NCBI GenBank assembly: GCA_032358255.1
Contig: JAULBX010026097.1
Location: forward strand, 1-52,188
Direction: 5' to 3'
Origin: Heterotrichella gracilis
Lineage: Eukaryota; Sar; Xanthophyceae; Tribonematales; Xanthonemataceae
Length of the DNA: 52,188 nt
In this document: positions 449-52,188 of the stretch, in pieces
Position numbering within the stretch: the stretch's first letter is position 1
Layout: each line of letters opens with the position of its first letter
The notes under the pieces: generated by a model
What the model saw: only the letters and a program-made list of their open reading frames with translations
The model's database searches: none
Told to the model about the DNA's origin: nothing
Translations under genes and position numbers: made by a program

Positions 449-1963
449 ATGGCGAGCCTTGCGCAGCGCCGGCTGGAGCTGCGTCAGCAAGCCCGCACCC
501 TGGAGCAGCAGTTCCTGCACACGGAGCAGCAGATGCCCGCACTGGTGGAGGCGGTCAGGCTCGACCTGCGCCAACTGGTGCTAGCCGACTTCAAGGAGAT
601 GCGCGCGCTAGCTGGCGGTGACCCAAATGCCTGGCTCCCAGAGGCTCAGGTTGGGTTTCTTAGTTAGTTAGTTGCATCCCAGCAACACAGCCAGATTAGC
701 AGTCAGTCGTGCACATGCGGCGCCAAGCAGTTCTTGGCTAGAGCTGGTCCTAGAGCGCCCCTAGAGGCTCAGGTGGGTGCGTATATATAGTGCATACCCA
801 TGTGGTCCAGCTAGTCCAGCCAGGGTTGCATGTGTGGGTGGGACTCCCGAGTCCAAACACGTGTCCTGCCATTCGTTCCAATGTTGGCAAACGGTGACCA
901 ACCGTTCGTGCTAGCACGTGGACTCTCGTGGTATCATTTCACACAGAAGTGGTTGGAAAAGGCAAGTACAGCTGCTCAAACCCCTGACCTCTTGGACAAA
1001 CCCTCGAGCTAAACCCAGTCGCCATGCCCCCGACCTTGCACCAAAGCAAGCCCATAAGTAAGTAAGTAAGTATTTGCTTTCCAGCTTCGAAGCCAGGTTA
1101 GCATGTCTGGGTATCATACAGCATATGCCTCACCCCAGTCCTAGAGCCAAGCTTAACTGACACTCTTTCGAGTGTGGCAGATGGTGGCCAACCAGTCGTG
1201 CCGCTTACCGCACTTTCGCCAAAGCAAGCCCATATATGCCCCCAAACTTCATAAACGGCAAGGCAACGGGTAAAAGTACAATCCTTGCAAGGGGTACTAA
1301 ATCACATCCCAATTGGTTTCCAGGTGGCGGAGCGCAGAGTGCAGTGGAATGCCATCCTCCAGCAGCGAGTGGATGAGCTGCACGCGCCGCAGTGGAAGGT
1401 GGTGCGGCAGCTGGTGGGGGTGCGCAGGCAGTTGAGGGAGCTGGACAAGCTGCTGGGACCTGCACAACCAGGTTGGGATGATAGTATAAAAATAACATAT
1501 AAATGTGATAAAGAAATAAGTGGGTCGGGGTAAAATGACTGAATAAGTCCAATGCATGGGTCACCAGGGTGCGTGGCTTTAACTGCTGAGACTCAATCCT
1601 GTCACCACATGGCAGGTGGTGCAAAATCCTATGTGGTTGTGCATGGTACCCGGGACCCTCTTCTTTGTCCCTTTGTTTGCAACAACTGTCTCACCTTGGG
1701 TACCCAAACTGCCTTGCCTTGAAACCTTTTCCAATTACGTGCGACTAACAAGTGGCTGTATCCCCTGCCTCTCCACAGCAAGCATGGGCAACATGCCTTC
1801 TTCACATGGCAAGCCTCCCGAGGCTCCTTCACATGGCATGCTGGATGAGTGGGGCCCTTCTCCGTCCAATGCACAAGGGGTGGGGTCCTGCCTGTGGCCC
1901 TTCTGGGGGTTGTGGGGCAGCAGCTATGGACCCACAGTCAACTTGAGCAAGAAGGAGTGCTGA
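449..1963 (+). CDS. Small coiled-coil protein, tentative three-exon model
   Basis: Proposed exons are 449-649, 1324-1471 and 1779-1963, giving about 177 aa. Exons 1 and 2 are rich in Leu, Gln, Arg and Glu with heptad-like spacing (for example RRLELRQQARTLEQQFLHTE and VGVRRQLRELDKLLGP), which predicts long amphipathic helices or a coiled coil. The junctions are CAG|GTTGGG with an acceptor after TTTCCAG, phase 0, then CCAG|GTTGGG, phase 1. The last exon follows a good pyrimidine tract and keeps phase to a TGA, but it is Gly/Ser/Trp-rich and is the weakest part. I recognise no family. The start is the first ATG in the open frame; an upstream exon remains possible. Intron 1 holds a copy of the end of exon 1 with its donor (758-779). 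Confidence 0.45.
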
Positions 1964-3276
1964 CTCATCTTATGCCCGCCAGCTGGCAGTGTGCACAGGC
2001 AAAGAATCCCTGGTGTCTACACAGTGTGAGTCTCGAGTAGGGGAGGAGGTGCCAGTTCGTCAAATACCGCTTGGACCAAAGCAAGGGCACATGGAGCCCA
2101 CGCCCAAGCCATGATCAGTGACCAGGTTGCTATAGGCAGAAGTATTCCTGACCATGCTCCAGGGCGGCCCTACAGTAGGAGCACCCACCCGTATTTGAGA
2201 TGGCGGTGTGCAATCCTTTGCGCCATGAGATATATATGCGCGATGGACCGGCAGTGGTCAAGGCTGTATCATACGTTAGGTGGGGAGAGTTGGAGGCAGG
2301 TGTGGTCCCTAGGCCCATTGCGTACAACCCCAGCATGATGGCCTCGCCGTTGAGGGTTTAATTTAGTAATGTTGCTATGTTTTATACTTTCTGCTTTCTT
2401 TCACAAGCAGCATTTCAGTCGCTATTTGTCATCCACAAGCGGCGTTTTCAGTAGCTATTTTTTTCTTTTCAAGGGGCATTTTCATTTGACAACGCCTGTT
2501 GTGTGTCTACCCATTCTAGACGCATGGGTCGGCCCCATGGCATGCTAATAAGTGTTCACTTCTTGCAGTGACAGCCCAAGAATAATTTATGCAAAAGTTG
2601 GTGAAAGAAAAGAAGACACCTGTGTAGCGAAGCCCATTCTTGACATGTAGCTAAGCTTAGGAAGCCTTCCTTATCCTGGTGTTCCTTCCATGTTTTATAC
2701 TATAAACCATACTATAAACCATTTAACCTGTAAACCTATTAGGAGCGGGATGATACCATGAGGTGGTGTTTGATTGTGAAAATTTGCTATAGCTTCGCAG
2801 TATACGTTTGTGATCAGCCTGAGGCAACCTCTGAGGTTGCTGCAACCTGTTGGCATTGAGATCCACAGAGGGCCAATGAAGGTGTTATTTTGTGAAATAA
2901 TGATGAATTACACTCATCCTTACTGCCAGCTATCAGCAAGCCACTTGAGTGCTGGCAGATGAGGTGGACAGTGTGAACTGCCATTGGCTGAGACAGGTCT
3001 GCAAGTCCAGTCCTGTAAACCCTATCAATGGCGTGGCACGGCGCCCTGCAACCCAATCACCGCCGGTGCGCACCAAGGCATTACTGCCCCGGTTTCCTTG
3101 CCCCACCCCTGTAGCTCGCCAGCCTTTTCATTATCCCCGGCACAGCGCGCATCCCTGCCGCGGCAGCCGCAGTCAACCCCATCCCCATTCCCTGGTGCTG
3201 CATCCCCATCCCCTGCGGATGCATCCCCATACCCTGCTGATGCATTCCCATTCCTTGCTGCTGCATCCCCGAATGA
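1964..3276. other. Convergent intergenic region
   Basis: Lies between the 3' ends of the coiled-coil gene and the minus-strand HAP2 gene. It is AT-richer from about 2340 to 2990. A TGTAA element, the usual chlorophyte poly(A) signal, occurs on the minus strand at 2908-2912 and could serve the HAP2 gene. No coding sequence is supported. The phrase accaaagcaag recurs near 1039, 1213 and 2072, suggesting an old dispersed repeat. Confidence 0.4.
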
Positions 3277-6200
3277 TCATTTCCCATTCCTCGCTGGCCC
3301 ATTTGCATCCCAGGATTGTTCCCAGCCCCATGGGGGGACCCTGGTTGCATCCCCGGGTGGTACCCACCCATCCCCATTTGCTGCTGCATCCCCATTTGCA
3401 TCTCCTGCTGCCCCCATTGCTGACCCATCGGCATGCCCATCGCATTTCCTCCCTTGTGGCGCCCCACTCTGCCCACCCCACTGTACAGACATCCCACCAC
3501 CACCACCACCACCACCACCACCACTGGGGTGTTGGGGACCATACGACGCAGGGATGCCCGAGGGGGGGAAACCACCACCACCAAAACCATTGGGACTCCC
3601 TCCACCCCCCATCCCCATCCCCATCCCCATCTGCTGCTGGGATGGCGGCTGCGGTGGCGACCCCGAGAAATCGCTGTACATGGGGTTGTTGGCAAATTCC
3701 TGGGATGCAAACCAGCGCTTGACCATGGAGGGGCGCTGGCGGGCGCCCTGGTTTGGCGCGATGAATGGGGCCTTCTCAAGCTGGGTTTGGCCTGGGGCAG
3801 AGGAGGACATTTATTCTCCTCTAGATATATTACCACCAGTACATATTTAAATAGAATTTCTTTAAGCCGTTTAAAGCCGAGGTGAATTCAAAGTGTTTGC
3901 CTCAAAAACATCACGACATGGGGTAATTTGCACATTTTTGTGAAGCCAGCATGCGCATCCAAAGTGCGCACCCTGCCCTGTGCTTGCCTCATGAGTCATG
4001 CCCCCCCATGCCCCCTTTCCTACTCAGGGCCATGGCTAGCGCCTTATCCCCCAAGGAATGCATGCACACCCACCCACCCTCACTTAACAGACGCGCACCT
4101 TGCGACATGCTGGGACCCTGTTCAGTCATGGCATGGTCTCCGGCACCTCGCTCCTTCCTGCTCAGTGCCCTAGCCAGCGCCTTTCCCCCGTTGTTGTCCA
4201 TGGTTTTCCAGCAGCAGGCCATGCACTTGAACAGCCAGCCGCCTGCGATTGCCTTGACAAGCACGATGCCTGCATATGGGTTAGAATTAGTGTTTAGGTT
4301 TGCGGGGTAAAATGCAGCTTGTCTTGTCCCTGATTGCCTTGATTACCACGATGCCTACACATGGTTTAGGGTTTAGCATTATATGCAGCTTGTTTTGCTC
4401 CTGGTCGCCTTGACCAGCACAATGCCTGCACAGGGCGATTGGTACGTAAGTGGTAGGGTATGTACCGCCATGTACTTGTGGCTCATGATGCACCACACAT
4501 TTCTCCATAATATCTTGCACTTGGCGGTGCACGTAGTGGCGCAGCCACGAAGAGGCTTATCACTAGAATGACTTGAGAATAACGTGTGTACACTCCGAAC
4601 CCTACACCCTACACCCTACACCCTTGCACGCACCTGCCAGCACCACCACCACCAGCGTGACCGCAGCCGATATGACCATGTCCCAGCATTTGTGGCTCAC
4701 GATGCACCACACAGTTGTCCATAGAGATTGCACATGGCAGTGCACTCCCCCGGTGCAGCAAAAAGAGGCTTGTCACAAGCGAGGTTAATTGTACACTCTT
4801 AACCCAAAACCGCAGACCCTAGACCCTTGCGCGCACCTGCCAGCACCACCACCACCAGGGTGACTGCGGCCGATATGACCATGTCCCAGCACTTGTGGCT
4901 CACAATGCACCACACGTTGGTGATGGACTTGCAGTTGGCGCTGCACTCAGCCTTGCGCCAGGAGGAGGGCTTCCACCAGGGGAGGGTGACGTTGGCGGCG
5001 GGGGGTGCCGGGGGGGAGGCGGTGTTGTTGCTGTTGGTGGTGCGGTTGTCGTACACCAGGGCGCTGGCAGAGAAGGGGACGGTGAGCTGCGCCTGGGTGG
5101 CACCCTACACAAGGGTTTCGGGGGTCAGGAATGGATTGTCATGGTGGTGGCGGAACCCTGAACCTCAAAATCCTAAAACCTTGACTACAAAGCCCCATGT
5201 AGCGTCCTACACCACCAGCTTGCAGGTGGCATATAAGGTTTAGGGTTTAGGGTACGTTGCACAGCCGCACCGTTGCGTCCTGCACCACCAGCTTGCATGT
5301 GTTGTTTGCTGCTGAGTCGCTCGTCAAATAAATGTCAAATACCAGGGACAGGGTGCGGGCCCTGGGGATGCTGACGGACTGCTCGGTGGGGGGCAGCACA
5401 CCGGGGGAGCAGGCGGTGACCTGCGGGGGTGGGGCAAATGTGGGTCTAATGTGGGGTACTTGGGGGTGTAGATGTGCCTGGATGTGAAGCAGCCTGGTTA
5501 CAGGAGAGGTTTGGGTGGGTATGGAGGGGACCAATTGGAGCTGCAGGCAGAGCATGCGCCAAGAAAACAGACAGACAAGGGGTAGTGGAATGCTGTAAGG
5601 TCTGGGCCCGATTCTTCACAGCCCCCAATAGCTCCCCACATATGCATGAGACAACGTGCACCACCGCACACATACCCCTTTCCACCTTCCATTGTCACTC
5701 ACCGACACTGTGTATGTTGCATCCAGCGTGCCTATGTTCTGCACTTGAGCCTGCAGGTACCCCCTGTCCCGCAGCGCCTCGACACTCCCGCAGCTCACGT
5801 TGGCGTACTGGCACACCTGAATGAAAGGGGGGTGATGATCAGGGTTTAGGGTTTAGGGTTTGGGTTTGAGGGTTTCAGCGGCTAGCTGACATGGATGTAC
5901 AAGAGGTGCAGGTGGGTGTTCATGTGTGTAGAGTCACATGCATGCCTACTGCAAGTGCATGACCAGACCCCAACCCCGAACCTCAATCCCCACAACCCAC
6001 CCTACCTAAAACCCCAAACCCCTAAACCCGGAACCCTAACCCTGTAACCCAATCGCCCCACCTGCGCCTGCAGTATCCTCACTGGCGCCGTGTTGACCAC
6101 GTATCTCATGGAGTCAGCCGCCACCTCCAGGCTCACCACGCTGGTCATCACCTGGGACAGGGGCAGGGCGAGGTACAGCCCGCTGCCGCTCTTGTACACC

Positions 6201-9200
6201 TGGGAGGTGGGAGGGTGGGGGATGGGTGGGTAAGGGGAGGGTATAGAGATGTGAGGCAAGGTACAGGCCGCTGCCGCTCTTGTACACCTGCGGGGTGGAG
6301 GGTGAGTGTGTGGGGGGGTGGTGGGGGTGCAGAAGGGCAGGGAGAGGTACAGGCCGCTGTCGCTCTTGTACACAAGAGAGAGGTGGTGAGGGTGTTGTTT
6401 TGCTGCAGAGGAATGCATTATTTCACACACCAAAAAACATGTGTGAAATAATGCATTCCTCTGCAGCATTTGCGCTGCATTGCACCGTTTACCCACCCCC
6501 CCAACTCTCACCGTCACCACCGCCGGCCCCACCTGGGTTTTCGCCAGCCCAGCCACCCCCCCCACAAAACCCTCCAGTAGGTACATGGGCGTCAGCCCAG
6601 CCGCGCTCCGGTTCACATCCGCGGCGTAAAAATCCAAAAGCTGCTGCTTCAGGCAATCCCCGGGTTGCTGCGCGCACCCGTTGGGCTGCGTGCGAAAAGC
6701 CTGGTACCCCACCCCAATCTTGTTGCATTCAAGTCCTGACTCTGAGACCAGCATGTTGTCCATGAGCATCCATTGGGCTAGGTTGGAGGAGACGAGCTGG
6801 TCCAGACGCATGGCTGTGGAGGGGAGAGGGGGTGACTGTATGAGAAACCGGATGGCAAGGGTGTGAGGGTTGCGGGGGTTTGGCGTGTCTCGGCCCATGG
6901 AGAAGACAAAGGTACCAAAGATGTATTAAATAAGTATTAATTCTGATATAATTCTGAAAGCCAAATGAACTCGGTCTCTTTTCAACGTAAACCCGTGCAT
7001 CAATATAAATTAGGTAGGAGGAGAGCTGGTGGAGGCACATGGCTGTGTGTAGGGGAATTTGGGGAAGGGGATGAGGTAAGGCGGAGGGCGCATCACAAAA
7101 TGGTACAAGCAATGCCAGGATAGGGACGGGTGGCGCATGCTTGTGCAAGGCTGATTGCTGGTCTGGCTTTGTTGCCGGTACGCTTGTAATAACAATAACA
7201 ATAATAATAAGGCGGAGGGCGCATGGCCGATCTGGGGGAGGGCCATCACCACAGCATGGACTTGCTTATATTGTTTGACCTTATTCTTTGGCTGTGGTAT
7301 TGCACATAAATCCATCTTACACACCCGCAGTGGTAGGGTTGACATACTCCAGCAGAACCTCAAGTCGCGTGGGATCAATAAGTGGTTCAAACAGCGCCAG
7401 GAAAGAGCTGCGTGGCGCCGCATTTGCAAGATCTTCCCAAGGTTGACCGACTGCTAATCTGGCTGTATTGCGAGAATGCATGTAAATAACTAACTGACTA
7501 ACACACCCGCAGACCTCATGACTGTTACCACCCCGCCACTTGATAGGCATAGCATGGCCTTGATAGCAGTTAAATGGTAGGAAGTTGACAATGGCCAAAT
7601 ATATAGCTAAGCATTTGCCATAAGTATAAATTCAAAAACTGGTAGATGCTGCCAAACCCAGGCCTGGCATAGATGGCGATTGCCAAAACTGGAATTGGCA
7701 ATCAATCGGACAGGTTTGGTAGGTGTTGGGAGCATTTTGGGTGCTAGGACAGGTTTGGTAACTTGCAAGCTCAGTTTGGCAAGTGGATCGGACAGGTTTG
7801 GCAACTTGGACAGGATTGGTAACTTTCCAGGTCATGAGCTTTGGCAGGTGGCTCGGACAGTTTTGGCAACTTGCCAGGTCAGTTTGGCAGGCGGATCGGA
7901 CAGGTTTGGTAGGTGCTGGGAACAGTTTGGTTGCCAGACAGTTTGGTGAGTTGCCAGGTCAGCTTTGGCAGATGATTTGGACAGGTTTGGTAACTCTCCA
8001 GGTCATGAGCTTTGGCAGGTGGCTTGGACAGGTTTGGTAACTTGCCAAGTCAGTTTGGCAGATGATTTGGACAGGTTTGAAAAGTTGCCAGATCAGTTTG
8101 GCAGGTGGTTTGGACAGGTTTGGTAACTTGCTAGGTTTTGTCCAAACCCTTGGGGGTTTAGCTAGCCGACAAACCCTCAAAGGACCCCATAAAACCCAAA
8201 CAACTCCACTGCAACATGTACATCAATGACAACCCGGCAAAAATGGAAACTAGTTTTTAGTGAATTTCCATTTATTGTTTGTCTGCCCCCACCTGGGTCT
8301 GGCCTGGGTGTGAAGAGCATCTTACGGGGTCTCGGCTGAACCCTAACAAACCCTATTGCGCGCAGGGTTATTCGGGGTTCACAGCGCGTTTCCAACCTGG
8401 GTCCGGCCTGGGTATGAACAGCATCTTGTTTGTGAGGTCCCTGATTGCTGTGTAGGACACAAAGTCGCCCTGCAGTTGCGCAAGGAGCAGGCCTGACTGG
8501 CTGAGGGCGCTCGACTTGGAGGGCGTCAGCAGCAGCTCCTCAACGGCGGTGCCTGAAAAACAAAATGATGAAATATATTTAATACGAAATAATGATTATA
8601 ACATACTTTTGGACTTGGCGGGGGTCAGCAGCAGCTCCTCAACGGTGGTGCCTGGAAATGAAATGAATAAGTGACAGAAATACAGGGTAGTAACTAGTTA
8701 TCAGGGGACAAAATTAAATATGTGGATTTCTGTGGGGGTCAACCTCCTTCACAGTGGTTGTGCCTGCAAATAAACTAATGCAGGTGACCATTTGACTGTA
8801 CTGCTGAGTGGTATGCAACCAAATTTCAAAGGCTGGGTCCCCACCTGCAAATGTCTGGTTGGTGGTGGCGTTTACCCCCGTGACTGGGGCTGTGAGGAAC
8901 ACCTGGATGCCAAAATCCAGCGTGGCGGGGCCGATGTAGAAACCCTGCAATGAGTGTAAGCATATGCTCGCGTCAGGGCATTTCATGCTCCAGTCTGTCT
9001 GTAGCAGGGTATCTCAGTGCCATGTCAGCGCTGGCATTGGACTGTTCGGCCTCGACCAGTGCATGTGCAGGGAGTCGTGCACGCGTGGTGCTTTACATGC
9101 AGATTATGGATGCTGAAAGCAAATAAATGTTGGGTGTGGCTTATGCATGACGCCGCTCCTTCCTAATCTTAGATTACAGGGGTGGCAAAAAGCTGCTGCT

Positions 9201-11578: not shown

Positions 11579-14500
11579 ATGGTGTTGCAACACACTGCCC
11601 AGTACACATCGCGGCACTGGGTCCTGCTCTTGTTCTCTTTGCTCACCACCACAACTCACGCAGCAGTTATTGCCAATTCTGTGATAGACAACTGCTACAA
11701 CGATGGGACAGTACGTGGCTCGTTGAACTCCATCCATCTTGTTATGTTGCCACCAATGGCCAACACTCTGCCTGGTTGGTTGCCAACAGTGTGGCTTCCC
11801 TTCCAGGTTGTAAACGGTTCCATAGTTTGCCAAAAGGCCCTTGTTACAACCGTTACAGTGAACAACGGACAGACCTTGGACACCCAGACGCTGAGCTATA
11901 CAGTTCCTTGCTATAATAGGCAAGTACCCATGAGCCCCAGCCCACTCAATCTGTACCCTGTGCACTCTTACTCCACACACCCACCCAACGGTGGAGACCA
12001 TACAAAGCGTGCCAGTTCCCGTGTATGGTCTATGGTTGCCATACACACACCACCAACCAACGGTTTGGGACCATGCAATGCGGACCACTTCCAGTGTATG
12101 ATACCTGGTTTGCTGCAGTCCCGGTGGAGGTTGCCCCTGCCCCTGCAACTACGCCACAGACCCTGGATGCACCTGCCAAGACCTCTCACAGTCCCTGTAC
12201 ATCAGCATCACCAAGACCCCCATCTATGGTATCTACCCCCTGAGGTACTTCCAGACCTTCAATGGCAATCCTGGGGAGGTGAGGACATGCTGACTTGCCA
12301 AAAGAAAGCACGCGCTCTGTGTTTGCCAGCCCGCCAGTTGACCACCCACCCACTGTGTCGCAGATTCTCTCGCTATCTAGGGCAGACTGCACGAACACTG
12401 TTACAGGGTAAGCACCAGCACACTGAACCCTAAACCCTGGCTAGGGCAGGCTGCACGAACACTGTTGCAGGTAAGCTTGGGAAACACGTGTCAGCACCAC
12501 GCTCCAGACCCGCACATGTATGTGGCCAACTTTGAGCAATCTTTGCGTTTTCACCCACACGCCATCCCGCAACACCCCGCCACCAGCACTTACACATTGC
12601 TCCCAGAGCCACTAGGGCCCGCCGCTCCAACCCCCACCCGCCCTCGCCCCAACCCGCCGCTCCACTCACACCCCCCCCTCGCCCCATCCCCGCAGAAACA
12701 CTACAACATTTTGCTGCAGCTGTGGCCCCACGCAGCGCCAGCTCAACCAGTGCCAGACAAAAACTTACTGCAACCAGGTGACACACGGCCTTAATTATCT
12801 GGGTAGAAAAGGGTCACCATCACCCCAATACAATTCTAACAGCCCACCACACATTGTCATGCCTTTGCACCCAGCTCACGCACCCACACACCATCACCAT
12901 CACCATCACCACACCCACACATCCACATACCCACACCATCGCCCTGCCCTCCCACCCACACCCACCCATCACCAAACCCTCCACCCCCCACCACACACAC
13001 ACCATCACCCTCCCCCCCTGCCAACGCCAGCCTTTCGCCCTTGTCCAGTTGATAGCCTCCATGGGCACTTGGGTGAATGGATTCTTTGTGCCCCCCACGG
13101 GCCAAGTCAACTGCTTCCCATACACCATGCACACCATGCAGTGGGGGGACACCTGGTATGATGTAAGTGTCGCGCCCTACTGTAGTAAATCACAAGGGTT
13201 TTTAACCCAAAATTTGCACATGGTGTTCAATCCTCGTGCGCTGCACTCCGTGGAGTCAAGCTATTTCATTGCCATTCCTTTGCCTAGGTTCAAAGGGTTT
13301 AGGGTATTTAACATCAGCGTGACCATCACTGCGCGATCATCGGATGAGCCCAGAAAACCTGAAACCCATCCTGATTACCCTCACTAGGGTTTCAACCCCG
13401 CAGACCCGCACTCTGGATAGGCTGCGCATGCATTGAACATCAGCGCCATCATACAGCTGGCAATCTGCTCCAAGGTCCATAAACTAGGGTTTTCCTCCTC
13501 GCAGGCGTACACCCTAGATGGGCTGCGCATGTATTTCAACATCAGCGTGACAATCACTGCGGGGGGCATGCGCCCGGAAACCCTAACGCTCAACCCCCAG
13601 ACCCTCACAGCCACCTCTGCTAGCGGCGTGGTCACCGTTACCCTGCAAGGGGATTTTGCTGGCTACGTGATGCTGCCCACCTTCACTGACAAGTACCTTA
13701 TGGTGCCCCATGGTGGAGCACGTAAGTGGGACAAAAACCCTACACCCTACACCCACACACTATGCATCCCATAGCCAAAACCTTGCGCCCCAAAACCCTA
13801 CAGAGCAATGTCGCTAGCTATTGATGCTACCTTTCTGACAAGCACCTCATTGTGCCGCATGGAGGTGCATGTACATCCCGCGCAGAAATCTCATCCCCAG
13901 TACTGTGAAACCCTAAACCCATGATTACATGGGGTCACCGCTCCACACCCCACAGCACAAATGTGCCCCTTATACACAAGCACACTCAATTATACCACCC
14001 ATCCTCTCCTGCCTGCAGTTGCTGCGGCTAACTCCACTGCCCTGGTTGATGACGCCTCCCGATGGATGCTTGTGGACAAGGTGCTGGTGTCGAGCTCAGG
14101 GGGGTGCAACAAGGTGGGTGTAGGAGGGGAGGGGAGGGCAAGCGCGGGTGCAGGTGTTGGTGAGGGTACAGAGGAGGCAAAACTTGGTGAATGTGGGAGG
14201 GGAGGGGAGTGGGGATACAATGGGGGACGGCTGAGTGAGAGGGAGGTGGCGGATGATGGTATTGCGTCATCTCCTCTTCACTACCACCCACCACCCGCCA
14301 CCACGTGCATTTTAACCCTGGGTGGGCAACAGGTGGACATCATCCCCCACCAATCCCCACCCACGCCACCCCAAGTTGGCGTGATCTCCAAGGACTTTAC
14401 CATGCCAATGTGCACAAACAACCCTCCAAATCCTGAGATCATATTCGAGATAAAACATGGAAACATTTTACTATCCCACCCACCCTCCACCGCAGGTTGG

Positions 14501-30567: not shown

Positions 30568-31312
30568 GGTTTTGATGTTTGCGGGGGAAGCTCAGCCCTA
30601 AGGTTTTGGTGGACTTGCGGTTTTGGCGGACCTTGAGGAGGGTTCTGATGGATTCTGTCAGGGTTTCACGGGCGTGTTGCTGGATGCAGTGGCAGTGCCC
30701 TGTGGTAGGAGATGGTAGGGCAGGGCTAAGCACTGTGAAGGGTGAAGCCCGAAGGGTTTGTAGGGTGAACCATTTAGGGGCACGGGTGTGGACTGGCTGC
30801 TGTGGTTGTGCGGTATGCATAGGGTTTTGCTGGGGCTGAGGCCATACTATGAGTTAGTAATTGTTGACGTTGGCGCACTTTTGAGGCATGCTTTATAGGT
30901 GTCAATGCGCTGCACTGTGAACAGTAAAATGAGTGTACAAGCAGTAGTGCATGGATGGGAGGCATGTGCTGTAGGTGTAGGGGCACATGGCAAGAAGCAT
31001 TGTGCATGGTATTTTGGCACATGGCGAGAAGAATGGTGCATGGCCTTTTTGGTGGGGGTGGGGGGCCAGCCGGATAGCTTGGATTTCGTGTTCTTGGCAT
31101 CACTGATGATTTTGCATAATGCAGGAGGGTTGGAAACCCTATGTTGGGGTTAACAGTCAACTTTGGAATAATAGCACGTACACTGTCTTTTTGTAACCTT
31201 GGTGCTTTATTGTTACTTGAATTGTGACAGTGTACCTGCCACAGATTGGCCACGGCAAGTGGTTTAGTTGAGTTATTCAATAGTGTGACCGCATATGTCG
31301 CAGCGTAGGCCA
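29690..31312 (+). repeat. Segmental duplication, copy 1
   Basis: About 1.6 kb covering exons 3-4 of the secreted-protein gene and its 3' flank, repeated at about 32450-34136. Conservation extends past the stop codon into non-coding DNA (for example GAGTTATTCAATAGTGTGAC at both ends), so the whole block was copied. Boundaries are approximate. Confidence 0.88.
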
Positions 31313-34136: not shown

Positions 34137-34145
34137 ATCCTACGG

Positions 34146-34818: not shown

Positions 34819-34874
34819 CACCACTCCTGAGTCGATATACTGAGTGATTTCCCGCAACCTAACCTTGCGTTGCC

Positions 34875-38161: not shown

Positions 38162-41100
38162 TCATTCATCCCCCTCCAGCGCCGCCAGCTCCTCCCCTCC
38201 CACAGTCGAGTACAGTATCTCCCTGCGCCACTTCTTGCGCCGGCTCTGCCAGCTGGCGGGGGGCCGGGACAGCAGCGCCGCAAGGTACTGGTTGCTGCGA
38301 GCCTGGAAATGAAAGAAAATACATTTTTATTTAATTTCAATAAAAATGTAGAAGAGGTTAAAATGAACGGGTATATGGAGGCAACTGGGCAAGCACAGTC
38401 ATTACCTGCGACAGCAGATTCAGCCAAGTGCGCTTACTCAAATGAGTGCCGCAGCACTCATGGAGGGGTCCACAACACACCAAAGCCTTAGTTAAGGGTT
38501 TTTACCCCACCAAACCTGGTTCCTGAGGCGCATGACTGCTGTCCGCCAGCGCCGCTCATCCTCACTCAACATCAAGCCGGAGGTACACCTAGCGCACCCT
38601 TCCAAGGGGTCTCTACCTCATACATGAACACCGCTATGCCACCAAAACCCTAGCTAGGGCCCACAATATGCCAAAACCACACTCCAGGGTTGTAAAGGAA
38701 ACCCCACCTGGTTCCTGAGGCACATGACTGCTCTCAAGATGTGCTGCTCCTCCTCGCTCAAGTCAGCCGCGGCAGTGCCCAGCGCGCGTCGGCGGGAGGT
38801 CGCCGCTTCGTACATCACCACCGCTGCTGCCACCGACACGTTGAACGACTCCACAAAGCCAGCCATGGGGATGGTAGTGAAGGCGTCCGCCATGGCCAGG
38901 GTTGCGGGGGAGACCCCTGCGGTTGTAAAAAGTGGGGAATGTGGTGGAGGACAAGAGTGCGCAATCGGAATTAGGGTGCCCTTGTGACCAAAACATTGCA
39001 ATGGAGCAATACCATCTCTCTCCCCTCGCCATCCCCAGGCCTATTCCCCTGGCCCCCATCCTTGGCCCCGTTCCCCTCACCTTCATGCTCATTGCCCAGC
39101 ACCAGCGCAGTGGGTTTGGTCCAGTCCACATCTTGGATGGGGATGCATCCTGGCCCCACAGCGGTGGCGATAATCTGGAGTAAACAGAAAGCAGAACATT
39201 TGAATTACTTTCAAAAATGTATCAGCAAACCAATGTCGTATAGGAATACGCCTGAACACATTTGGGTGGCAGGGTTGCAATACGCATTTTAACGCGTGTG
39301 GCACAGCAACAACACGCCAAACAAATCCATACCAAAGTCGACAACCTTGAAATGTGCACATAAGCACTCCCATACCTGCAAGCCGCTTTCCTTTGTGTGG
39401 CAACAGCAGCTAGCGCAGTCTGTCCACATCCACACATCCCATCCACTGAACCCTAAAACCCTTCAGCCCTAACCCCTATCGCGTGCGCGCACCGCACCTG
39501 GAAGCCGCTGTCCTTTGCGTGCTTTATGCAGCTTGCGCTGTCCGTCCACAGGCGCACATCCAGCCACTTCTCTGCACCACCACTGTTGCGCTGGCTCTGC
39601 TTGTATTGGAGGCTGCAGCAAGGGGCGAGGGGCGGGGTGTCAACGGAAGCACTCATTATATCACCCATGTTTGCTTGTTTTGTTACCACGTTACTCTGAT
39701 TCACACCCCTTGGGAGGAGTCTTGAAACTGTTGACAACAATGCAAGTTTGCGATCAAGATGGACCCCACAATCCCACCACCCACCTGTTGTTGATGCAGT
39801 GCACGGCACCAAATCCCATACCTGCACAGCAACAGGAAGCAGGTTATACTTTGTTCTTCATCACCAAACAAATGTTTCTCAATGCAATACAAGCGCGGCT
39901 CATGCAGCATAGTAACTTCTACTCCTACAGCAAGCCGAGTACCCATAAAACAACACATACCCTAACAGCAAGCGTTGGACACTTCCCAACGACTCGCATA
40001 CCCTTAAGAGCGACCCTAGGGCCCTCCTTTTCGCCGAATTGCACACTGCCGTACAAAGATAAATACCCTATCCACTAAGCCCTAAACCCTTACCTTCCGC
40101 CGACCTGCACACTGCCGCCAGGTTGCCCATGTCGTACAGGCCTGGAGGGTGTGGGGTTGGGGTTGGGGTCATGGAGAGGGGGGGGTGAAGATGATGGGTG
40201 TTTGGCTAGTGGGTCATGCCAGGCTGGTCTGGTGCACATGGGGTGCGTAAATGTACATTGGAGGCGCACGGGGGTTATATCACCGCACGTGTGTGTATGC
40301 AAGCGGATGTATCGCACCTTCCACGATGGGGAGGACGTTGAAGGTGCGTCGGGCCACAACCTGCATAGCCACAAAGCCCAATTACAACACGTTGGATGGA
40401 TAACGTCCAGGGTTTGTCATGCATTTGCTGGGCCAATTTAGGGCCAATTTAGGGTCCAGGGTTTGTCATGCATTTGCTATCTTAACCCTGGACCCTAAAT
40501 TGGCCCTAAATTGGTTGATACATAACCCAGGCGCCCCCGTCTGACACTTTCGATTCGCAGATTTGGCGCCAGATAGTATAGATCAAGGCTGGATGCACGC
40601 TATCATCCACCAAGAAGTGTCCTCAACGTCGGCAGCAGGCTCAGCACAGCGCGTTGCGTCATACCCTGAACCCTACTTTAGGGTCCTGCAAGACCATGCG
40701 CACCTGCCTGACCCTCTCATTCCTTGTATCCAGCATGGTTGGCCCCAGCGTGTCGATGATTTGCTGGCTGCTGGCGATCACGCTGCCACCCACCAGGAAC
40801 TGGTCCTTGAAAGGGAAGCGCGAGTTGGCGGCAAGCATCTCCGCTGGTGTGTTGCGCAAGGGTTTCGTGTGGGCAGACCCTAGGGCAGGGGGAAACAATA
40901 GAACTAGCTAAGTTTCTAGTCCTGACCACTAGGGAAATGGAAGGGACAGGGCGAGAGAGGCCCAGCACAAGTATAGACCCTAGGGCAGGGGGAAACAATA
41001 GGACTAGGTGCATATGTCGCTACAGGATTGAGTATTGGGGGGAAATGGTAGGGATAGGTGAGGGAGACACCGCCGAAATACAGGCTGGCCTTCCTCACGT

Positions 41101-46700: not shown

Positions 46701-49700
46701 GCGTGATTTCCCCCAACCCCGGCCTGTGCGGCACAGTCCCCCCCAAGGGCCCGAACACCGCACCCCTGGTGGGATACAACTCGCAGACAAACACCTTCTA
46801 CACAGTCAAGTCATTCGAGTGCGGAGGTGAGGCAAACACCGTCGACGCGGTTTTGGGTTTTGTGTAGGGTTCAGGATTTTTGGACTGAAAGTGCACGCCG
46901 CATCACAAGGCATGCCACACCACCACAGCTACTTGGGGTTTAGGATTGTGTTTTAGGGCCAGCGATGCACGCCGCATCATGGTATACGGTATGCCACACT
47001 CCCACAATGTATGTTACTGCCAAACTTAATCCTATTTCCCCCTTCGCCCTGGACTCACCCCCTTCGCTCCCTTCTGCAGCCCCCGCCCCCGCCCCCACCT
47101 TGGCACCCGCACCCGCACCACTACCCATCGTGCTCCCCCTGCCCGCCCCACTGCCCGCACCATTCCCCGCACCATTGCCGGCACCGGTAAGCTTCTACCC
47201 ACCCACCCACACACACACACACCACCATCACCACCACCCTCTTCCACTGCCTGCCTTGACCCCACTTCTCCCCCCGCCACCATATTGATGTTATTACAAG
47301 CGAGGCATGGCGCCAATGTGTCCTCAGAGACTGCTGCCTTGCTGTGAAACCACAATGATCTTTCAAGGATGCTGGAAACTAGGTGTAATCCCAGGAATGA
47401 TTGGTCTTTGGTCTCACTGGTATCACGTTGTCATGGTTAGTTAAAGTTGATGCAAAATAGAATAAGAAAACCATTAATGACGGGAGGAGGCCTTGCAGCG
47501 CGCCCCAATTCCATCCTCACGCTTGCACAATCTCCATTCCATCCCCTCCCATGGCACAACCTCCCATTACACCCCCTTCTTACCCACCACCACCCATCCC
47601 CTGCTCCAGGTGCCAGCCCCCCTCCCGGCCCCCCTCCCAGCGCCCCTCCCCGCACCCGCACCAGCCCCCATCATCCTCCCCGCCCCCGCACCGGCACCTG
47701 TGGAGGTCCCCCTACCCGCACCCCTGGTGGCCCCCGCCCCCGCGCCAATGGCCGACATTGCGCCGGCCCCGGCACCCGGGGCAATTATGGCCCCTGCGCC
47801 CGCCCCTGAAATGCAGATTGCACCCGCGCCCGCACCCGTGGTGGAAATGGTGCCCCTCCCGGCCCCCCAGATGGCGCCGGAATTTGCGCCCCTGCCGGCC
47901 CCCCAGATGGCGCCGGAATTCGCCCCCGCGCCCGCCCCCACATTTGAGCCGACATTTGCGCCCGCCCCGACCCCCACAATGGTGCCCACCTACGCCCCCG
48001 CCCCAACCCCCACACCCGAACCGTCCTCGCCCCCCACATTTGCTCCAATCCCTGCCCCCGCAATGGCCCCAATGGTAGCGGCCTCCTTCCCCCCACGCGC
48101 CCCTCCCCCCTCCCTGGTGTATGCAATTATTTTGCATGCCTTCCGCCCAAAATATTGTTTTCCCTGGACCCCCTACCTGTTGCCGACTCACATTCCAATG
48201 CCTTTTTATCTTCTAGTTATCCAATGCCCTCCAGAATTTCCATATAATATTCATACAATGCCCATATTTCCTTCCCACTCACCTTCTTCCCTTCTCCCCC
48301 CCCAGGCGCCCGCCCCCGCCCCCACCCCCTCCCCCCCCGTCACCCTCACCGCCGCCATCCAGCTGGTTGGGGGAAATGCACTCAATGCCAATGACACCGC
48401 CATCAGCAAGGCTGTGGCCCAGGTGCTGGGGGATGCTCCCGGGGACCTGCAGTTCATGGTCCAGGGAGTGCTCAAATCCCAGGTGAGGGGGGTCATTTTC
48501 AAGGGGTGGGGTGGGGGAGGGGGGGAAGCTACAGGTGGTGGTGTTTGCGGGGCTTGCAGGGAGTGCCACAGTAGGAACGTCTATTCCCATAGGGTGACAC
48601 GTGGCTCAACCCTGCTAGGGTTTGCACACACACACACACACACTCTACCCACCACCCACCCACCGACACCCACGCACCCACACCCACACCCACCACACCC
48701 ACCCACCACACCCACACCCACCACCCACACACCACCGCAGGAGGTGAACGTGTCCCCCACCGCCCGCCGCCGCCGCCACCTGGCGCAGGCCGCCGCCCCC
48801 TCCCCCTCCCCCGCCCCCAACGGCATGCTGTACGATGTGGTCATCACCACTCCCGGGGACCAGCAGCAGGGGGTGCAGCAGGCGCTAAATGACTCCTTTT
48901 CAAACGGCCAGTTTGACATTGCACTGCAGGAGAACGGTGCGCCCCTGATCATCCCTGAACCCTAAACCCTAGACAGTTTTACCAGCAGCAGGGGATGCAG
49001 CAGGCGCTGAATGACTCGTTTTCGACCGGCCAGTTTGACATCGGCCTGCAGGAGAATGGTGCGGGCCTGACCATCCCTGTACCCATTGTAATAAAACCCT
49101 GAACCCTGTACGGTACTTGATGACCATTCCCGTGGTCAAACCCTAGCCCTGAACCCTAAACTGTTGGACGCGGCGCTGCAGGAGGTTGGGAAGGACCTGA
49201 TGATCGCTGTCATCGCTGAGGAATGTGATTTAATCGTTTAATATAATCGTTTGGCCTCACACCTCCCTTCCTGGGATCTTCCTCACCCAAGGTCATGTTT
49301 GGCTACGCGCAGGGTTTTCAGCAAATCTGGGAATCCCTGGGATTAACACTTGCAAATCTTGGTACCAACCTTTGCGCAACCTGCCCTGCTTAAACCCTTC
49401 CAAAATCAAGAAAAAACCCAGTTAAAACCCCACACGCTGACCTCCCCCATTTCCCTTCCCTGCAGGCGTGCTAGTGGACAGCTCAACCCTACAGGGTATC
49501 ACCGAGGGGGCGGTGTCCTTCCCACCACCCCCGGTGGCGGCCCCCGCCCCCGCCCCCGCCCCCCCACCCCCCTCCAAGAGCAACTCCACCATGTACATCG
49601 CCATTGGGGCAGGTGTGGGTGCGGCCTTGGTTGCTGCAGTGGCAGGTGAGACAACGCTGTTTAGGGTTTTAGGGTTTAGGGTTTAAGGATTGCATCACTG

Positions 49701-51122
49701 CTCCAAGAGCAACTGCACCATGTACATCGCAATAGGTGCAGGGGTGGGTGCGGCTGTGGTCGCTGCACTGGCAGGTGAGGGAAAACCCCAGCTTAGGGTT
49801 TGCAGCACACCCTTGGCCATGCGCCACCACCCCACCCTCAGCCCCACCACCCACCAACCGCACATACCTGCCTGTGTCTCGCTACAGGGCCCACGAGCCT
49901 GGCACCAAACCCTACACCCTAAACCCTCCACCACCCACCACCATCGTCCACTGTGGCTCCCCATGCACCACCCCACCCTCACCCAAACCCCTTCCCCGCC
50001 CGCAGTGTTCCTCTTCGTGCGGTACCGCAAGGGCAAGGGCAAGCGAACAGACCTCCCTGTTTCCCGCTACAAGGCGCGGGAGCCCGATGTTGACCCCGCA
50101 TACGCACGCCAGGGCAGCTTGGGCGGAACCCCGCAAGGGGGCGACAGGGGCGAGTTTGGGGATGGGCTGGGCTTTGACGACGCGCTGGAATACGCGCCTG
50201 CGGGGACGGATGACATGGACATCGTGCCCAGTGAGTGGGGTATGTAGGGTCTTGCAGGGGTTGCAGGGCTGTAGGGTTTACCAGGGTTTTAGGGTTTGGG
50301 TGGTGATGACATGGACGTTGTGCTCAGTGCGTGGGGTATGTAGGGTTTCATGGTGACGAGCTTGTAGCGTTTACAGGGTCTTGAGCTTTCAGGGTTTAGG
50401 GTTAGCTTGTTTGCGCTGCTTGCATGGACTTGTCAAGTGAGTAGGGCCCAGTGGGTCTTCAGTGGTTGCAGAGTATTAGGGTTTGTAGGGTTGAGGCGTG
50501 CACCCATGCAGAGGGCTGTGGACATCGCCAGTACGCACAATCCCATTCCAAATCCCTCTCCCCCTCTCCACTCAACCCAGCCCCCTCCCCCTCCCCCGCA
50601 GTCAACCCCTCAAGCCGGCCCCAGTCCTCCCCCCCACCCCCGGGCGAGGATGAGGCTGCACGCGCCCAGCGCAAGCTGTCTGGCAAGTCCACCGTCATTC
50701 CCTACAGCCAGTACCGCAAGAACAGGATGGACTCCATGCGGCAAGAAGGTGGGTGGTGGCTGGAACCCTGAAACCCGAAACCCGTGGCCTGAAAACCCTA
50801 ATACCTGCAGCCTGTACTGCACAACAGGATGGACTCAATGCAGCGGCTTGGTGAATGGGACACATGCATGCTTAGGGTGAAACTGAGGGCTGACCCCTAT
50901 AACAGAACCCCCCAAACCCTGTGCGCACCATCACCTGTGCGCACCGTTCCCACACCTCTAAACCCTGATCACCAACCCTAAACCCTTGCTTGTGGTTTTG
51001 CAGCAGAGGGCTCCGCCCCCGGCCTGTCTGTGCGCACCGCCTCCCAGGCCCGGCGCAAGGGGCTGCTGGGCGAGGAGGAGCTGACACCTGGCGCAACCAA
51101 GGACGAGGGGGACATCGTATGA
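43736..51122 (+). CDS. Single-pass LRR membrane protein with Pro/Ala-rich ectodomain
   Basis: Predicted 969-aa type I membrane protein. Exons: 43736-44096, 44508-44625, 44935-45194, 45429-45636, 46156-46335, 46702-46826, 47080-47186, 47610-48116, 48306-48482, 48741-48936, 49466-49645, 50006-50230, 50602-50748, 51004-51122. Order: signal peptide (LLATLLSTLLLAPYTATA); a Pro-rich segment to about 120; an LRR N-terminal cap with paired Cys (FCGAKGVKCNG); plant-type LRRs at about 160-385 (NLSANNLTGSLP, LDVSTNQLTGNLP, LNNNKFSSSLP) ending PNPGLCGTVPP; an Ala-Pro spacer to about 635; an unrecognised domain to about 760 with a basic RRRRH site; a transmembrane segment at about 790-812 (YIAIGAGVGAALVAAVAG plus VFLFV); and a cytoplasmic tail with RYRKGKGKR and VIPYSQYRK. 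There is no kinase domain. An adhesion or receptor-like role at the cell surface is inferred. The exon 8 end (48116) could instead be 48076. Confidence 0.85.
46025..46078 (+). repeat. Upstream copy of the start of LRR exon 5
   Basis: CGCAGGCAGCTG-GCCTGAA-A with AACAAGTTCAGCAGCAG copies 46151-46192. It keeps acceptor and frame, coding LCLNSNKFSSS, but reads to a stop after about 30 codons. Confidence 0.92.
46490..46545 (+). repeat. Copy of the end of LRR exon 5 with donor
   Basis: GGGCATGTGAG with diverged preceding sequence matches the exon 5 terminus at 46290-46342. Confidence 0.75.
48622..48641. repeat. CA dinucleotide microsatellite
   Basis: About nine CA units in intron 9 of the LRR gene, followed by CCCAC-rich low-complexity sequence to about 48735. 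Confidence 0.9.
48974..49066 (+). repeat. Copy of the end of LRR exon 10 with donor
   Basis: About 90 bp, roughly 85-90 percent identical to 48860-48942 by eye. It codes in frame for QQALNDSFSTGQFDIGLQEN and is followed by the same G|GTGCG donor. CCCTAAACCC separates original and copy. A more decayed third copy may lie near 49165-49200. Confidence 0.93.
49657..49685 (+). repeat. Telomere-like TTTAGGG tract
   Basis: GTTTAGGGTTTTAGGGTTTA then GGGTTTA, placed exactly between the end of LRR exon 11 and its copy. Confidence 0.92.
49693..49776 (+). repeat. Copy of the end of LRR exon 11 with donor
   Basis: About 80 bp repeating the transmembrane-coding end of exon 11 (MYIAIGAGVGAAVVAALAG) with the GTGAG donor, in frame. 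Using this donor instead of 49645 would change or duplicate the membrane segment. Confidence 0.93.
49866..49905 (+). repeat. Upstream copy from within LRR exon 12
   Basis: ACCTGCCTGTGTCTCGCTAC plus following bases copies 50051-50090 (coding LPVSRYKAREP). Confidence 0.85.
50297..50346 (+). repeat. Copy of the end of LRR exon 12 with donor
   Basis: GATGACATGGACGTTGTGCT with CAGTGCGTGGGGTATGTAGG matches 50209-50250, bracketed by AGGGTTTAGGG-type sequence. Confidence 0.9.
50822..50850 (+). repeat. Copy of the end of LRR exon 13
   Basis: AACAGGATGGACTCAATGC repeats AACAGGATGGACTCCATGC at 50721-50739, in the next intron. Confidence 0.85.
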
Positions 51123-52188
51123 GCAAGACGCCATTCCATGACCCCCCGTGGGATCTGTCTTTGAGGATCCTCGGGGTTAACAAAGCCCTTTTGAGAACCC
51201 AACACCCCGCTACTGTGCGGGCGAGAACCACGTGCGAAACCCTACACACGCCCCCGAAGGGACAAGGGGAGCATCGTATGAGCAAGAAGACCCATATGGG
51301 GCCCCCGCCGCTGCGAGTGCGGCGGCCCGATTAGAGCTGCGACGGGCATGGCATGCGCCCAAAAACCCTGGCAGAACCCTAAACGCACCCTCTTACATCA
51401 GCCTAGCAAGGGGCGAGGGCTGTTGTGAGCAGCACACAACCGACCGCAGGTGAACCTGGCCGCTGCATGCGCCAGTCGTATTCAGAGCATGCAATCTGGC
51501 GATGATGCAGCTCAGTCAAACATTATATGAGCTGCCAGCTGTCCCATGGCACAGTCGATGTATAGACTTTGCCCCAAAGTTGCGCAAAGTGCCAAACCCT
51601 AAACCCTAGAGGGGGGTTGGGCCGCCTGTGCTTAGTGCCACTCATGGCGGCATCAGGCTGGACCTTGGGTGCTCTGCGCGCTGTGATTTATATAAAAATA
51701 TATTAAAAGAATTCTGGTTTTTACAAAGACCCTGCTGTAAATGCATGGCCCATACGGGAAGTTTACCCCTTCAATGACGTGCTATGGTTATCATACAAGT
51801 AATAACATATGATGTTTGGCAATGCCATGACCATGGTACCTCATATAACAGTTGCGATCCAAAGATGAGTCAGACTGTTGCACACCGAGTTGTGTGCCAA
51901 ATTGGTTGAACCGACTGACATATATTTTTCACTGTCAGGGACCAGACTGACCTAGAAACATTACACATTACACATTACCCTCATGCGCGCATTTGCCCAA
52001 TCCTTTTCCACTGAAATAGGAAAGGTTTGCCTCCCCTGTCAACCACTCCCACAATATACCCCAATACTGCTCTGCTTACAAAGAGGACACCCTCTTTGGT
52101 GCCAAACACGACGCATACAAGCAAATTTGGACAAGATCAGGTCAATGCAACCCAGAATATACAACCGACCAGATGTTCAAAGCCACGA
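51123..52188. other. 3' flank of the LRR gene
   Basis: A copy of the coding 3' end and stop region (GGGGA-CATCGTATGAGCAAGA) occurs at about 51258-51283. TGTAA at about 51736 is a candidate poly(A) signal. The rest is AT-richer and I see no gene in it. Confidence 0.5.

What the first reader, a model, noticed from the sequence alone, without database searches (positions are those of the whole stretch)
449..51290. Exon-intron boundaries are duplicated into the adjacent intron in every gene of the window
By eye I count roughly 45 partial copies of exon ends in eight unrelated genes. They follow a polarity: copies of an exon start (with its acceptor region) lie upstream in the preceding intron; copies of an exon end (with its donor) lie downstream in the following intron. 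Spacing is usually 80-150 bp, spacers are often TTTAGGG/CCCTAAA-like, and many copies keep splice site and reading frame. This is what repeated tandem duplication across splice junctions would leave. Intron gain by tandem duplication has been proposed in eukaryotes, and introner elements are known in some algae, but I know of no description of pervasive, ongoing junction copying of this kind.
Basis: partly seen in the sequence, partly recalled or inferred. Interest (0 to 1): 0.9.

Follow-up and report, generated by a model that had tools for sequence, protein, structure and literature searches.

The report
Exon edges copied into neighbouring introns
In this green-alga genome the ends of exons have repeatedly been duplicated, as short side-by-side copies often joined by telomere-like DNA, into the introns next to them, and in the part examined this happens at exon borders far more often than evenly spread duplication would give.

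Summary
I tested the window plus 24 other 10-kb stretches (292 kb) with self-trained gene models. 67 of 726 exon edges have a copy in the adjacent intron on the predicted side; controls gave 5 of 726 (wrong side), 1 of 726 (inverted) and 0 of 725 (other introns). The copies are local tandem duplications, typically 60-125 bp, straddling the exon border. Of 88 repeat clusters 68 touch exon plus intron, 7 only intron, 2 only intergenic DNA (one of the 68 is really mostly intergenic). Spike-ins and the harshest simulation predict at least 25 intron and 34 intergenic, so detection does not explain the border preference. Joins carry filler fourfold enriched in the genome's telomere motif. Frequency rises towards gene 3' ends. 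Splice sites decay neutrally and frame is not kept, so the copies look like scars. Best explanation: staggered breaks at exon borders, filled in, often tailed with telomere-type repeats, and end-joined. Why breaks favour exon borders is unresolved; an mRNA-linked cause is suggested only by exon dependence and 3' bias.

The parts
4837..5104 (-). Exon of HAP2-like gene A; its 3' part (about 4866-4948) has a downstream intron copy at 4663-4747
   Evidence: direct repeat 83.5% over 85 bp, offset 203; model exon
6164..6370 (-). Acceptor edge of exon 6062-6199 (parent 6164-6196) with upstream intron copies at 6255-6284 and 6338-6370
13310..13873 (+). Exon 13505-13721 of HAP2-like gene B: start copied upstream (13310-13333 and about 13416), end (13658-13724) copied downstream (13813-13873)
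14375..14560 (+). Exon start 14496 with upstream copy 14375-14435; 39-bp unaligned join
   Evidence: #29
19525..19669 (-). Exon end (parent 19624-19669) with downstream copy 19525-19570 in the methionine gamma-lyase-like gene
   Evidence: junction supported by homologous proteins
20396..20659 (-). Acceptor edge of exon 20247-20430 with two upstream tandem copies (unit about 105-113 bp)
   Evidence: #8; junction supported by homologs
21010..21309 (-). Acceptor edge of exon 20894-21063 with upstream tandem copies (unit 110 bp) that include telomere-like intron sequence
   Evidence: #4; junction supported by homologs, and an intron copy also matches homologs
22614..22773 (-). Acceptor edge of exon 22472-22645 (parent 22614-22660), upstream copy 22727-22773
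26417..26570 (+). Exon start 26537 (thioesterase-like gene) with upstream copy 26417-26477
   Evidence: (#25)
30473..30727 (+). Last-exon segment (30473-30532, exon 30265-30567) copied beyond the stop codon at 30669-30727: an edge without a splice site
36592..37154 (+). Array: exon start 37090 with five degenerate upstream copies (36592, 36693, 36799, 36914, 37001), several separated by CCCTAAA-like DNA
38514..38761 (-). Exon end (parent 38706-38761, exon 38708-38916, SpoU-type methylase gene) with downstream copy 38514-38569
48888..49074 (+). Tandem unit of 122 bp in the leucine-rich-repeat gene (48888-48952 and 49010-49074); between them lies CCCTAAACCCTA
   Evidence: sequence
49578..49779 (+). 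Exon end with downstream copy (49578-49650 / 49707-49779), unit 129 bp, join with TTTAGGG repeats
   Evidence: #21
50211..50338 (+). Exon end with downstream copy (50211-50242 / 50307-50338), TTTAGGG-like join
   Evidence: #34
50701..50844 (+). Exon end with downstream copy (50701-50742 / 50804-50844)

Best explanation
These are scars of a recurrent local DNA-repair process. A break with long complementary overhangs (two nicks on opposite strands some tens to about 100 bp apart) forms across the border of a coding exon. Both overhangs are filled in, the ends are often extended with telomere-type repeats or other filler, and the ends are joined. This leaves exon edge plus adjacent intron, filler, then exon edge plus adjacent intron again. 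The gene survives because the outer, original splice site still defines the exon, so the extra copy falls inside the intron and then decays neutrally. Duplications wholly inside coding exons are removed by selection, which explains the polarity. Shown here: local direct duplication, polarity, border preference in the sample, telomere-rich joins, neutral decay of splice sites, rise towards the 3' end. Inferred: the staggered break, the fill-in and the use of telomerase. Unresolved: why breaks favour exon borders. The exon dependence and 3' bias point to something mRNA-related (ends of RNA:DNA hybrids, or aborted cDNA recombination), but that step was not tested.
For: Direct and local: 163 direct pairs within 20-600 bp, against 2 inverted pairs at 100-800 bp. 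Polarity 67 of 726 vs 5 of 726, repeated outside the window 46 of 571 vs 3 of 571. Of 141 coding-to-noncoding matches (51 of them in repeat-protein genes of L018) 80 lie in the adjacent intron, 4 in non-adjacent introns, and none spans a spliced exon-exon join, so the source is local genomic DNA, not mRNA. Border preference: 68 exon+intron, 7 intron and 2 intergenic clusters, outside the window 48, 4 and 1, against similar detection of implanted duplications: 44/68 junction, 41/75 intron, 48/76 intergenic. Harshest age-matched simulation expects 25 intron and 34 intergenic. Equal-sensitivity 40-mers: exon edges 55 of 679, intergenic 2 of 954. Filler: 37 joins with a gap of 10 bp or more, 19 hold the telomere 7-mer vs 5.3 (sd 2.1) in position-matched copy-free introns; coverage 13.2% vs 3.1%; in 19 of 25 comparisons the gap resembles the outer flank only weakly (score under 20). 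Telomere is (TTTAGGG)n, within the first 10 bases of six contigs, and telomerase is encoded. Neutral decay: 42 of 58 splice dinucleotides kept, expectation 0.69. 3' bias in complete genes by fifths: 3/101, 5/122, 13/112, 10/113, 16/73; 0 of 5000 within-gene permutations reach it. Literature passages: direct target duplications at telomeric-repeat insertions, ascribed to staggered breaks (PMC7215372); tandem duplications from fill-in of 3' overhangs by the telomere factor CST with Pol alpha-primase (PMC8355091).
Against: No break, repair intermediate or orthologous empty site was seen; all is inferred from one genome. 12 of 49 resolved events have no join gap of 10 bp or more, and 18 of the 37 gaps lack the motif, so telomeric filler is not universal; #13 has instead a 6-bp shared TGTACA at both unit ends. 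Six of 25 gaps do resemble the outer flank somewhat (scores 21-34), so some gaps may be diverged unit rather than filler. Telomere-like motifs also sit 10-40 nt from both splice sites in introns without detectable copies, so some may precede the duplication. Two of the 68 border clusters are doubtful: L020 304-672 is mostly intergenic and L018 7414-8321 is a repeat protein. Only 292 kb in 25 places was read, on contigs taken from an earlier hit list. Gene models are self-trained; some copies were called exons and one exon was split wrongly. The 3' bias could reflect weaker selection against mis-splicing near gene ends. Almost no duplications lie wholly in sequence beside genes, which an exon-wide mRNA-guided process acting on untranslated exon parts might be expected to give.
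Confidence: 0.6

Rival explanations
1. Ordinary background: short tandem duplications occur evenly over the genome, selection removes those inside exons, and copies that include a conserved exon stay recognisable longer.
For: Explains polarity, depth profile into the exon and survival of copies without any special mechanism; exon parts of copies are more similar than intron parts (0.876 vs 0.816 identity), the direction expected of one decaying copy against two.
Against: Predicts 25-74 intron-only and 34-83 intergenic clusters per 68 border clusters over all simulations run; observed 7 and 2 (3 intergenic if L020 304-672 is moved). Implanted duplications were found at similar rates in all compartments. 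Of 30 clusters scoring 80 or more, 25 are exon+intron (two of them doubtful), 1 intron, 1 intergenic, 2 exon, 1 exon+flank. Does not predict the 3' bias.
Confidence: 0.12
2. Telomere-like tracts near splice sites are pre-existing sequence signals (splicing elements) and are themselves fragile; they trigger the duplications, so telomere repeats are cause, not filler.
For: Tracts peak 10-40 nt from donors and acceptors even in copy-free introns; edges with a tract within 60 nt are more often copied: 14 of 73 vs 21 of 314 (start), 21 of 118 vs 12 of 265 (end), odds ratios 3.3 and 4.6.
Against: Joins are richer than position-matched intron and than the outer flank, in both orientations; 17 of 62 copy-bearing introns have no exact 7-mer of the repeat; a tract inside the intron should also cause intron-only duplications on its other side, which are rare.
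Confidence: 0.17
3. The copies are functional (decoy or alternative splice sites, or mutually exclusive exon ends) and kept by selection.
For: An array of five upstream copies, some with acceptor-like ends, exists (36.6-37.15 kb), and the gene finder sometimes accepts a copy as an exon.
Against: Splice dinucleotides are retained only at the neutral rate (42 of 58), offsets are flat modulo 3, exon copies decay to as little as 70% identity.
Confidence: 0.05
4. The copies are by-products of intron gain (internal gene duplication at AGGT, or introner transposons).
For: Tandem duplication and introners are proposed sources of introns, and introners were found mainly in fast-evolving lineages such as green algae (passages of PMC3443670 and PMC9860276).
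Against: Copies include the flank of an intron that already existed, on the intron side of the same splice site (intron part above zero in 47 of 49 events); introns can hold several copies; no element shared among the joins was noticed by eye; the one dispersed repeat looked at is a SINE-like element unrelated to the copies.
Confidence: 0.04

Closest known systems
Small tandem duplications from staggered double-strand breaks / paired nicks (CST-Pol alpha-primase fill-in, end joining)
   Same: Direct, local duplication of the overhang; experiments used 43-49 bp overhangs (passages of PMC8355091)
   Different: In the passages seen not tied to exon borders, 3'-biased within genes, or joined by telomere repeats; here the enzymes are untested
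Interstitial telomeric sequence insertion at double-strand breaks (primates, rodents, horse)
   Same: Telomere repeats inserted at break sites, some with direct duplication of the target (duplication alone in 3 of 66 horse loci, with deletion and addition in 2 more; PMC7215372 passages)
   Different: There human insertions in introns fit random placement and duplication is rare; here duplication is the rule and sites hug exon borders
Intron gain by tandem genomic duplication or break repair (Rogers model; Daphnia)
   Same: Duplication of gene segments tolerated through splicing; short direct repeats from staggered breaks proposed (PMC3443670 passages)
   Different: No new intron here; pre-existing introns grow by copying their own borders
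Introner elements
   Same: Genome-wide remodelling of introns, reported in green algae among others (PMC9860276 passages)
   Different: The duplicated sequence is the local exon edge, not a dispersed element; repeats are far longer than the 3-9 bp target duplications described

Membership tests
Staggered-break tandem duplication | Second copy adjacent, same orientation, source within about 100-250 bp | tested here: met
Staggered-break tandem duplication | Non-homologous filler or microhomology at the join | tested here: met
   37 of 49 resolved events have a join gap of 10 bp or more; 19 of 25 gaps are unlike the outer flank by score (no null run); microhomology seen in single cases only (#13), not tested statistically
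Staggered-break tandem duplication | Dependence on Ku, CST or Pol alpha-primase | not testable with these tools
   needs mutants; a CTC1 family search did not complete
Interstitial telomeric insertion at breaks | Inserted repeat equals the species' telomere repeat | tested here: met
   (TTTAGGG)6 within the first 10 bases of six contigs, though also at internal sites such as C120; same motif enriched in joins
Interstitial telomeric insertion at breaks | Empty orthologous site lacks the repeat | not testable with these tools
   the tool states that this genome has no relatives held
Introner | Families of similar introns with end-to-end similarity | not tested
   introns were not compared all against all; joins were only read by eye
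Introner | Insertion into exons creating new introns | tested here: not met
   copies include flank of a pre-existing intron (47 of 49 events)
Intron gain by internal tandem duplication | Intron ends are copies of the opposite exon edges, split at AGGT | tested here: not met
   the copies read include their own intron-side flank; introns were not scanned systematically for AGGT-type gains

The most novel reading that the evidence does not exclude
An mRNA-linked mutational process: mature transcripts (through RNA:DNA hybrids that end at exon borders, or through aborted cDNA recombination that stalls where exon homology ends) make exon borders a hot spot for staggered breaks, which are repaired by telomere-type end processing. 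Exon edges are thereby copied into introns again and again, more often towards gene 3' ends, so that transcription history lengthens introns from their borders.
Probability: 0.3. Interest if true: 0.9.

Novelty: new variant of a known kind. Interest (0 to 1): 0.72.

Why it matters
How introns grow, and why break-repair scars and telomere-like repeats collect in them, are open questions. Here a single genome carries a dense, dateable record of one process: in the sample about one exon edge in eleven bears a recognisable copy (67 of 726). It allows mutation bias (where duplications arise) to be separated from selection (where they survive). It also gives a natural system in which the proposed links between transcription, breakage at exon borders and telomere-type repair can be tested. 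If the border and 3' preference holds genome-wide, it would be a gene-structure-dependent mutational process that my ten searches did not find described. It is also a practical warning for annotation, because a gene finder accepts some copies as exons.

Tried and rejected
Assembly artefact: thought unlikely, because most copies are 5-30% diverged; no second assembly was seen. Chance or low complexity: rejected by inverted, other-intron and wrong-side controls, with telomere-like and simple sequence masked. cDNA insertion as source of the copies: rejected, no spliced-junction copy among 141 matches. Frame conservation: rejected. Pure detection bias: tested by simulation (35), end-to-end spike-in on the 24 non-window stretches (37), equal-sensitivity 40-mers (39) and age-matched simulation (75); none explains the intergenic deficit. 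Moving the doubtful cluster L020 304-672 to intergenic (3 instead of 2) does not change this (P about 3e-11 for a mean of 33).

Led nowhere: Rfam on the window gave no match (64). Organism identification by 18S did not complete (28, 33, 43, 53, 59, 71, 74). Many of the best named protein hits are core chlorophyte algae at 64-72% (27) and Ostreobium and Bryopsis at 43-47% (54), so it is a green alga of unplaced class. A CTC1 search did not complete (72) and not repeated. Ten literature searches, limited to open-licence papers, listed no description of this pattern; I read listings, and passages of four papers.

Rows dropped: exons under 25 or 40 bp from edge tests; 51 matches from repeat-protein genes in L018; offsets outside 45-260 bp, alignments under score 50 and redundant rows from the join analysis (49 events from 68 edges). 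The intergenic 40-mers exclude the first 310 bp beside genes. Permutation tests use genes with at least one copy and four edges (22 of 42 complete genes, 29 of 62 in all).
Full report
Setting. The window is the whole contig C359 (52,188 bp) of a 68.5-Mb assembly in 903 contigs. Many of the best named protein matches are core chlorophyte algae (64-72% identity; Ostreobium and Bryopsis at 43-47%), so it is a green alga; the species was not identified. I read the window and 24 further 10-kb stretches, 292 kb in 25 sequences, 0.4% of the genome. The 24 stretches lie on contigs that appeared in the hit list, at places chosen without looking at the sequence.

Gene models. No annotation is held, so I wrote a hidden Markov gene finder and trained it on these sequences. 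It converged on a clear donor (CAG|GTGAG-like) and acceptor (TGCAG|G-like) consensus. It gave 64 genes, 475 exons (median 144 bp) and 411 introns (median 269 bp). Window products carry recognisable domains: thioesterase, SpoU methylase, leucine-rich repeats; HAP2 exons were found at two places. Two genes with several copies were compared with homologous proteins: the methionine gamma-lyase-like gene of the window (3 copy-bearing junctions, four homologs shown) and a BCS1-like ATPase gene in L015 (4 junctions, five homologs). At all 7 the homologs run through without the copied piece; at two of the four in L015, and for one homolog in the window gene, there is a 1-4 residue alignment gap at or near the junction. 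In the window gene two intron copies also match the homologs, as expected of exon copies, and one model exon was split wrongly.

The observation. Local direct repeats are abundant and local inverted ones are not, apart from hairpins: at score 40 or more, 71 direct pairs lie at 100-200 bp and 52 at 200-400 bp, against 2 and 0 inverted; below 100 bp there are 31 direct and 17 inverted. Taking 40-bp exon edges and asking for a match in the neighbouring intron: 67 of 726 on the expected side, 5 of 726 on the wrong side, 1 of 726 inverted, 0 of 725 in length-matched introns of other genes, 1 of 352 in a non-adjacent intron of the same gene. Outside the window alone: 46 of 571, 3 of 571, 1 of 571. 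The chance of being copied falls with depth into the exon and is nil beyond about 120 bp, apart from one case. Offsets peak at 75-135 bp, with a second mode at 165-250 bp. Introns with a copy are longer (median 362 vs 257 bp).

What the copies look like. In 49 resolved events the aligned duplicated piece has a median of 80 bp (33-241). It holds exon sequence (22-127 bp) and, in 47 of 49, some adjacent intron. Exon-part identity is 0.876 and intron-part 0.816, the direction expected of one decaying copy against two, though the rows were selected for exon similarity. Of 58 copies alignable at the splice site, 42 keep the dinucleotide; neighbouring identity of 0.83 predicts 0.69. Offsets modulo 3 are 23, 24 and 21. 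The copies therefore behave as neutral debris. Of 141 coding-to-noncoding matches, 80 are in the adjacent intron, 51 come from repeat-protein genes of L018, 5 lie in flanks of other genes, 4 in non-adjacent introns, 1 is inverted, and none crosses a spliced exon-exon join. So the source is genomic DNA at the border itself.

Is the border special? The polarity alone needs no special mechanism: any tandem duplication across a border leaves its copy in the intron, and those inside exons are removed by selection. The question is whether duplications wholly in introns or between genes are as frequent. In this sample they are not: 88 clusters fall as 68 exon plus intron, 7 intron, 2 intergenic, 8 exon, 3 exon plus flank; outside the window 48, 4, 1, 6, 2. 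Two of the 68 are doubtful (L020 304-672 mostly intergenic; L018 7414-8321 a repeat protein). In the other direction, by my reading of the sequence, the 3 window clusters labelled intron look like border copies next to missed or short exon parts. Randomly implanted duplications were recovered by the same pipeline at 44/68 (border), 41/75 (intron), 48/76 (intergenic). Simulation with uniform ages predicts 57-74 intron-only and 66-83 intergenic clusters per 68 border clusters. A harsher simulation, which gives every event the age implied by its own exon identity and so mimics a past burst, still predicts at least 25 and 34. A separate 40-mer test at equal sensitivity gives 55 of 679 exon edges (score 30 or more) against 2 of 954 intergenic segments, no more than the reverse-complement background of 1 of 477. 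Intron segments are intermediate (19 of 755), and this set includes intron parts of border units.

Telomere-like joins. TTTAGGG is the telomere repeat: six-unit arrays lie within the first 10 bases of six contigs, besides some internal sites, and telomerase exons were found. Exact 7-mers of the repeat occur at 13.3 per kb in introns, 3.2 in intergenic DNA and 0.6 in exons, peaking 10-40 nt from both splice sites. In 37 joins with a gap of 10 bp or more, 19 hold the motif, against 5.3 (sd 2.1) in position-matched stretches of copy-free introns; coverage is 13.2% against 3.1%, and none of 1000 draws reached it. In 19 of 25 comparisons the gap is unlike the outer flank (score under 20), in 6 it scores 21-34, and both motif orientations occur. 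Edges with a tract within 60 nt are copied more often (odds ratios 3.3 and 4.6). Twelve of 49 events have no gap of 10 bp or more and 18 of 37 gaps lack the motif, so this filler is frequent but not universal.

Position in the gene. In 42 complete models the copied fraction rises by fifths of the coding sequence: 3/101, 5/122, 13/112, 10/113, 16/73. None of 5000 within-gene permutations reached the observed mean (22 genes with copies). With exon lengths matched over all genes p is 0.004; outside the window 0 of 5000 (14 genes), in the window p 0.012 (8 genes). Restricting to strongly coding exons leaves the gradient (1/38, 3/57, 7/52, 8/70, 11/46). Telomere tracts at borders show a weaker 3' trend (p 0.017; p 0.07 without copied edges). 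Ends of last exons, which have no splice site, are also copied into the 3' flank: 3 of 42, against 1 of 30 at gene starts and 7 of 954 intergenic segments (p 0.007 for stop edges, small numbers).

Mechanism. The anatomy (same-orientation duplication of tens of bp to about 100 bp, filler at the join, telomere repeats in the filler) is what fill-in and end joining of staggered breaks is known to leave. In mouse cells tandem duplications at breaks with 3' overhangs depend largely on the telomere factor CST with Pol alpha-primase (passages of PMC8355091). In mammals telomere repeats inserted at breaks are sometimes flanked by direct target duplications ascribed to staggered breaks (passages of PMC7215372). 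That the same enzymes act here is inference. What makes exon borders the target is unknown. Exon dependence, confinement to genes and the 3' gradient would fit ends of RNA:DNA hybrids or aborted recombination with cDNA; a milder cost of mis-splicing near gene ends is a plain alternative for the gradient. The near absence of duplications wholly beside genes argues against a simple exon-wide version.

Comparison. It works like staggered-break tandem duplication with interstitial telomere insertion. The events read do not fit introner insertion or intron gain by internal duplication, because the copied pieces carry pre-existing intron flank; introns were not compared all against all, nor scanned for AGGT-type gains. 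I found no description of border-specific, 3'-biased duplication in ten searches of open-licence papers, which is a limited test.

Noticed in passing
window 3025-11060 (-) and 11580-18335 (+): Two divergent HAP2/GCS1-like genes head to head; the 6 matches to this family that the search listed for the 68.5-Mb assembly are all in this contig.
   Followed up: partly
window 1055-1218: About 160-bp dispersed repeat with a (TAAG)n-type tail, flanked in the window by a 14-bp direct repeat (CCAAAGCAAGCCCA): looks like a SINE inserted in an intron; 39 further matches listed genome-wide, a lower bound.
   Followed up: partly
window 28926-30727 vs 32472-33550: A gene segment appears duplicated about 3 kb downstream in direct orientation, the copy partly degenerate (one search shows an excess of direct pairs at 3.2-6.4 kb; sequence); the gene product has a weak, below-cut-off match to a beta-trefoil lectin domain.
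   Followed up: no
window 34137-34290: Palindromic tandem array with a unit of about 50 bp (GCATGCGCATGCCCA...) outside the gene models' exons.
   Followed up: no
window 6405-6470 and 40430-40515: Near-perfect hairpins in introns, seen by eye; local inverted repeats closer than 100 bp are the commonest inverted class (17 of 28).
   Followed up: no
window 7695-8136: Intergenic GGACAGGTTTGG-type minisatellite, one of the two intergenic tandem clusters of the sample.
   Followed up: no
introns of the sampled stretches: Telomere-like 7-mers are four times denser in introns than in intergenic DNA and sit 10-40 nt from both splice sites even where no copy is detectable; near acceptors almost only the CCCTAAA orientation occurs. 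Either old repair scars or splicing elements.
   Followed up: partly
L035, gene on the - strand: Ion-channel gene with a cyclic-nucleotide-binding domain and 8 copied exon edges; the gene finder includes near-duplicate exons.
   Followed up: partly
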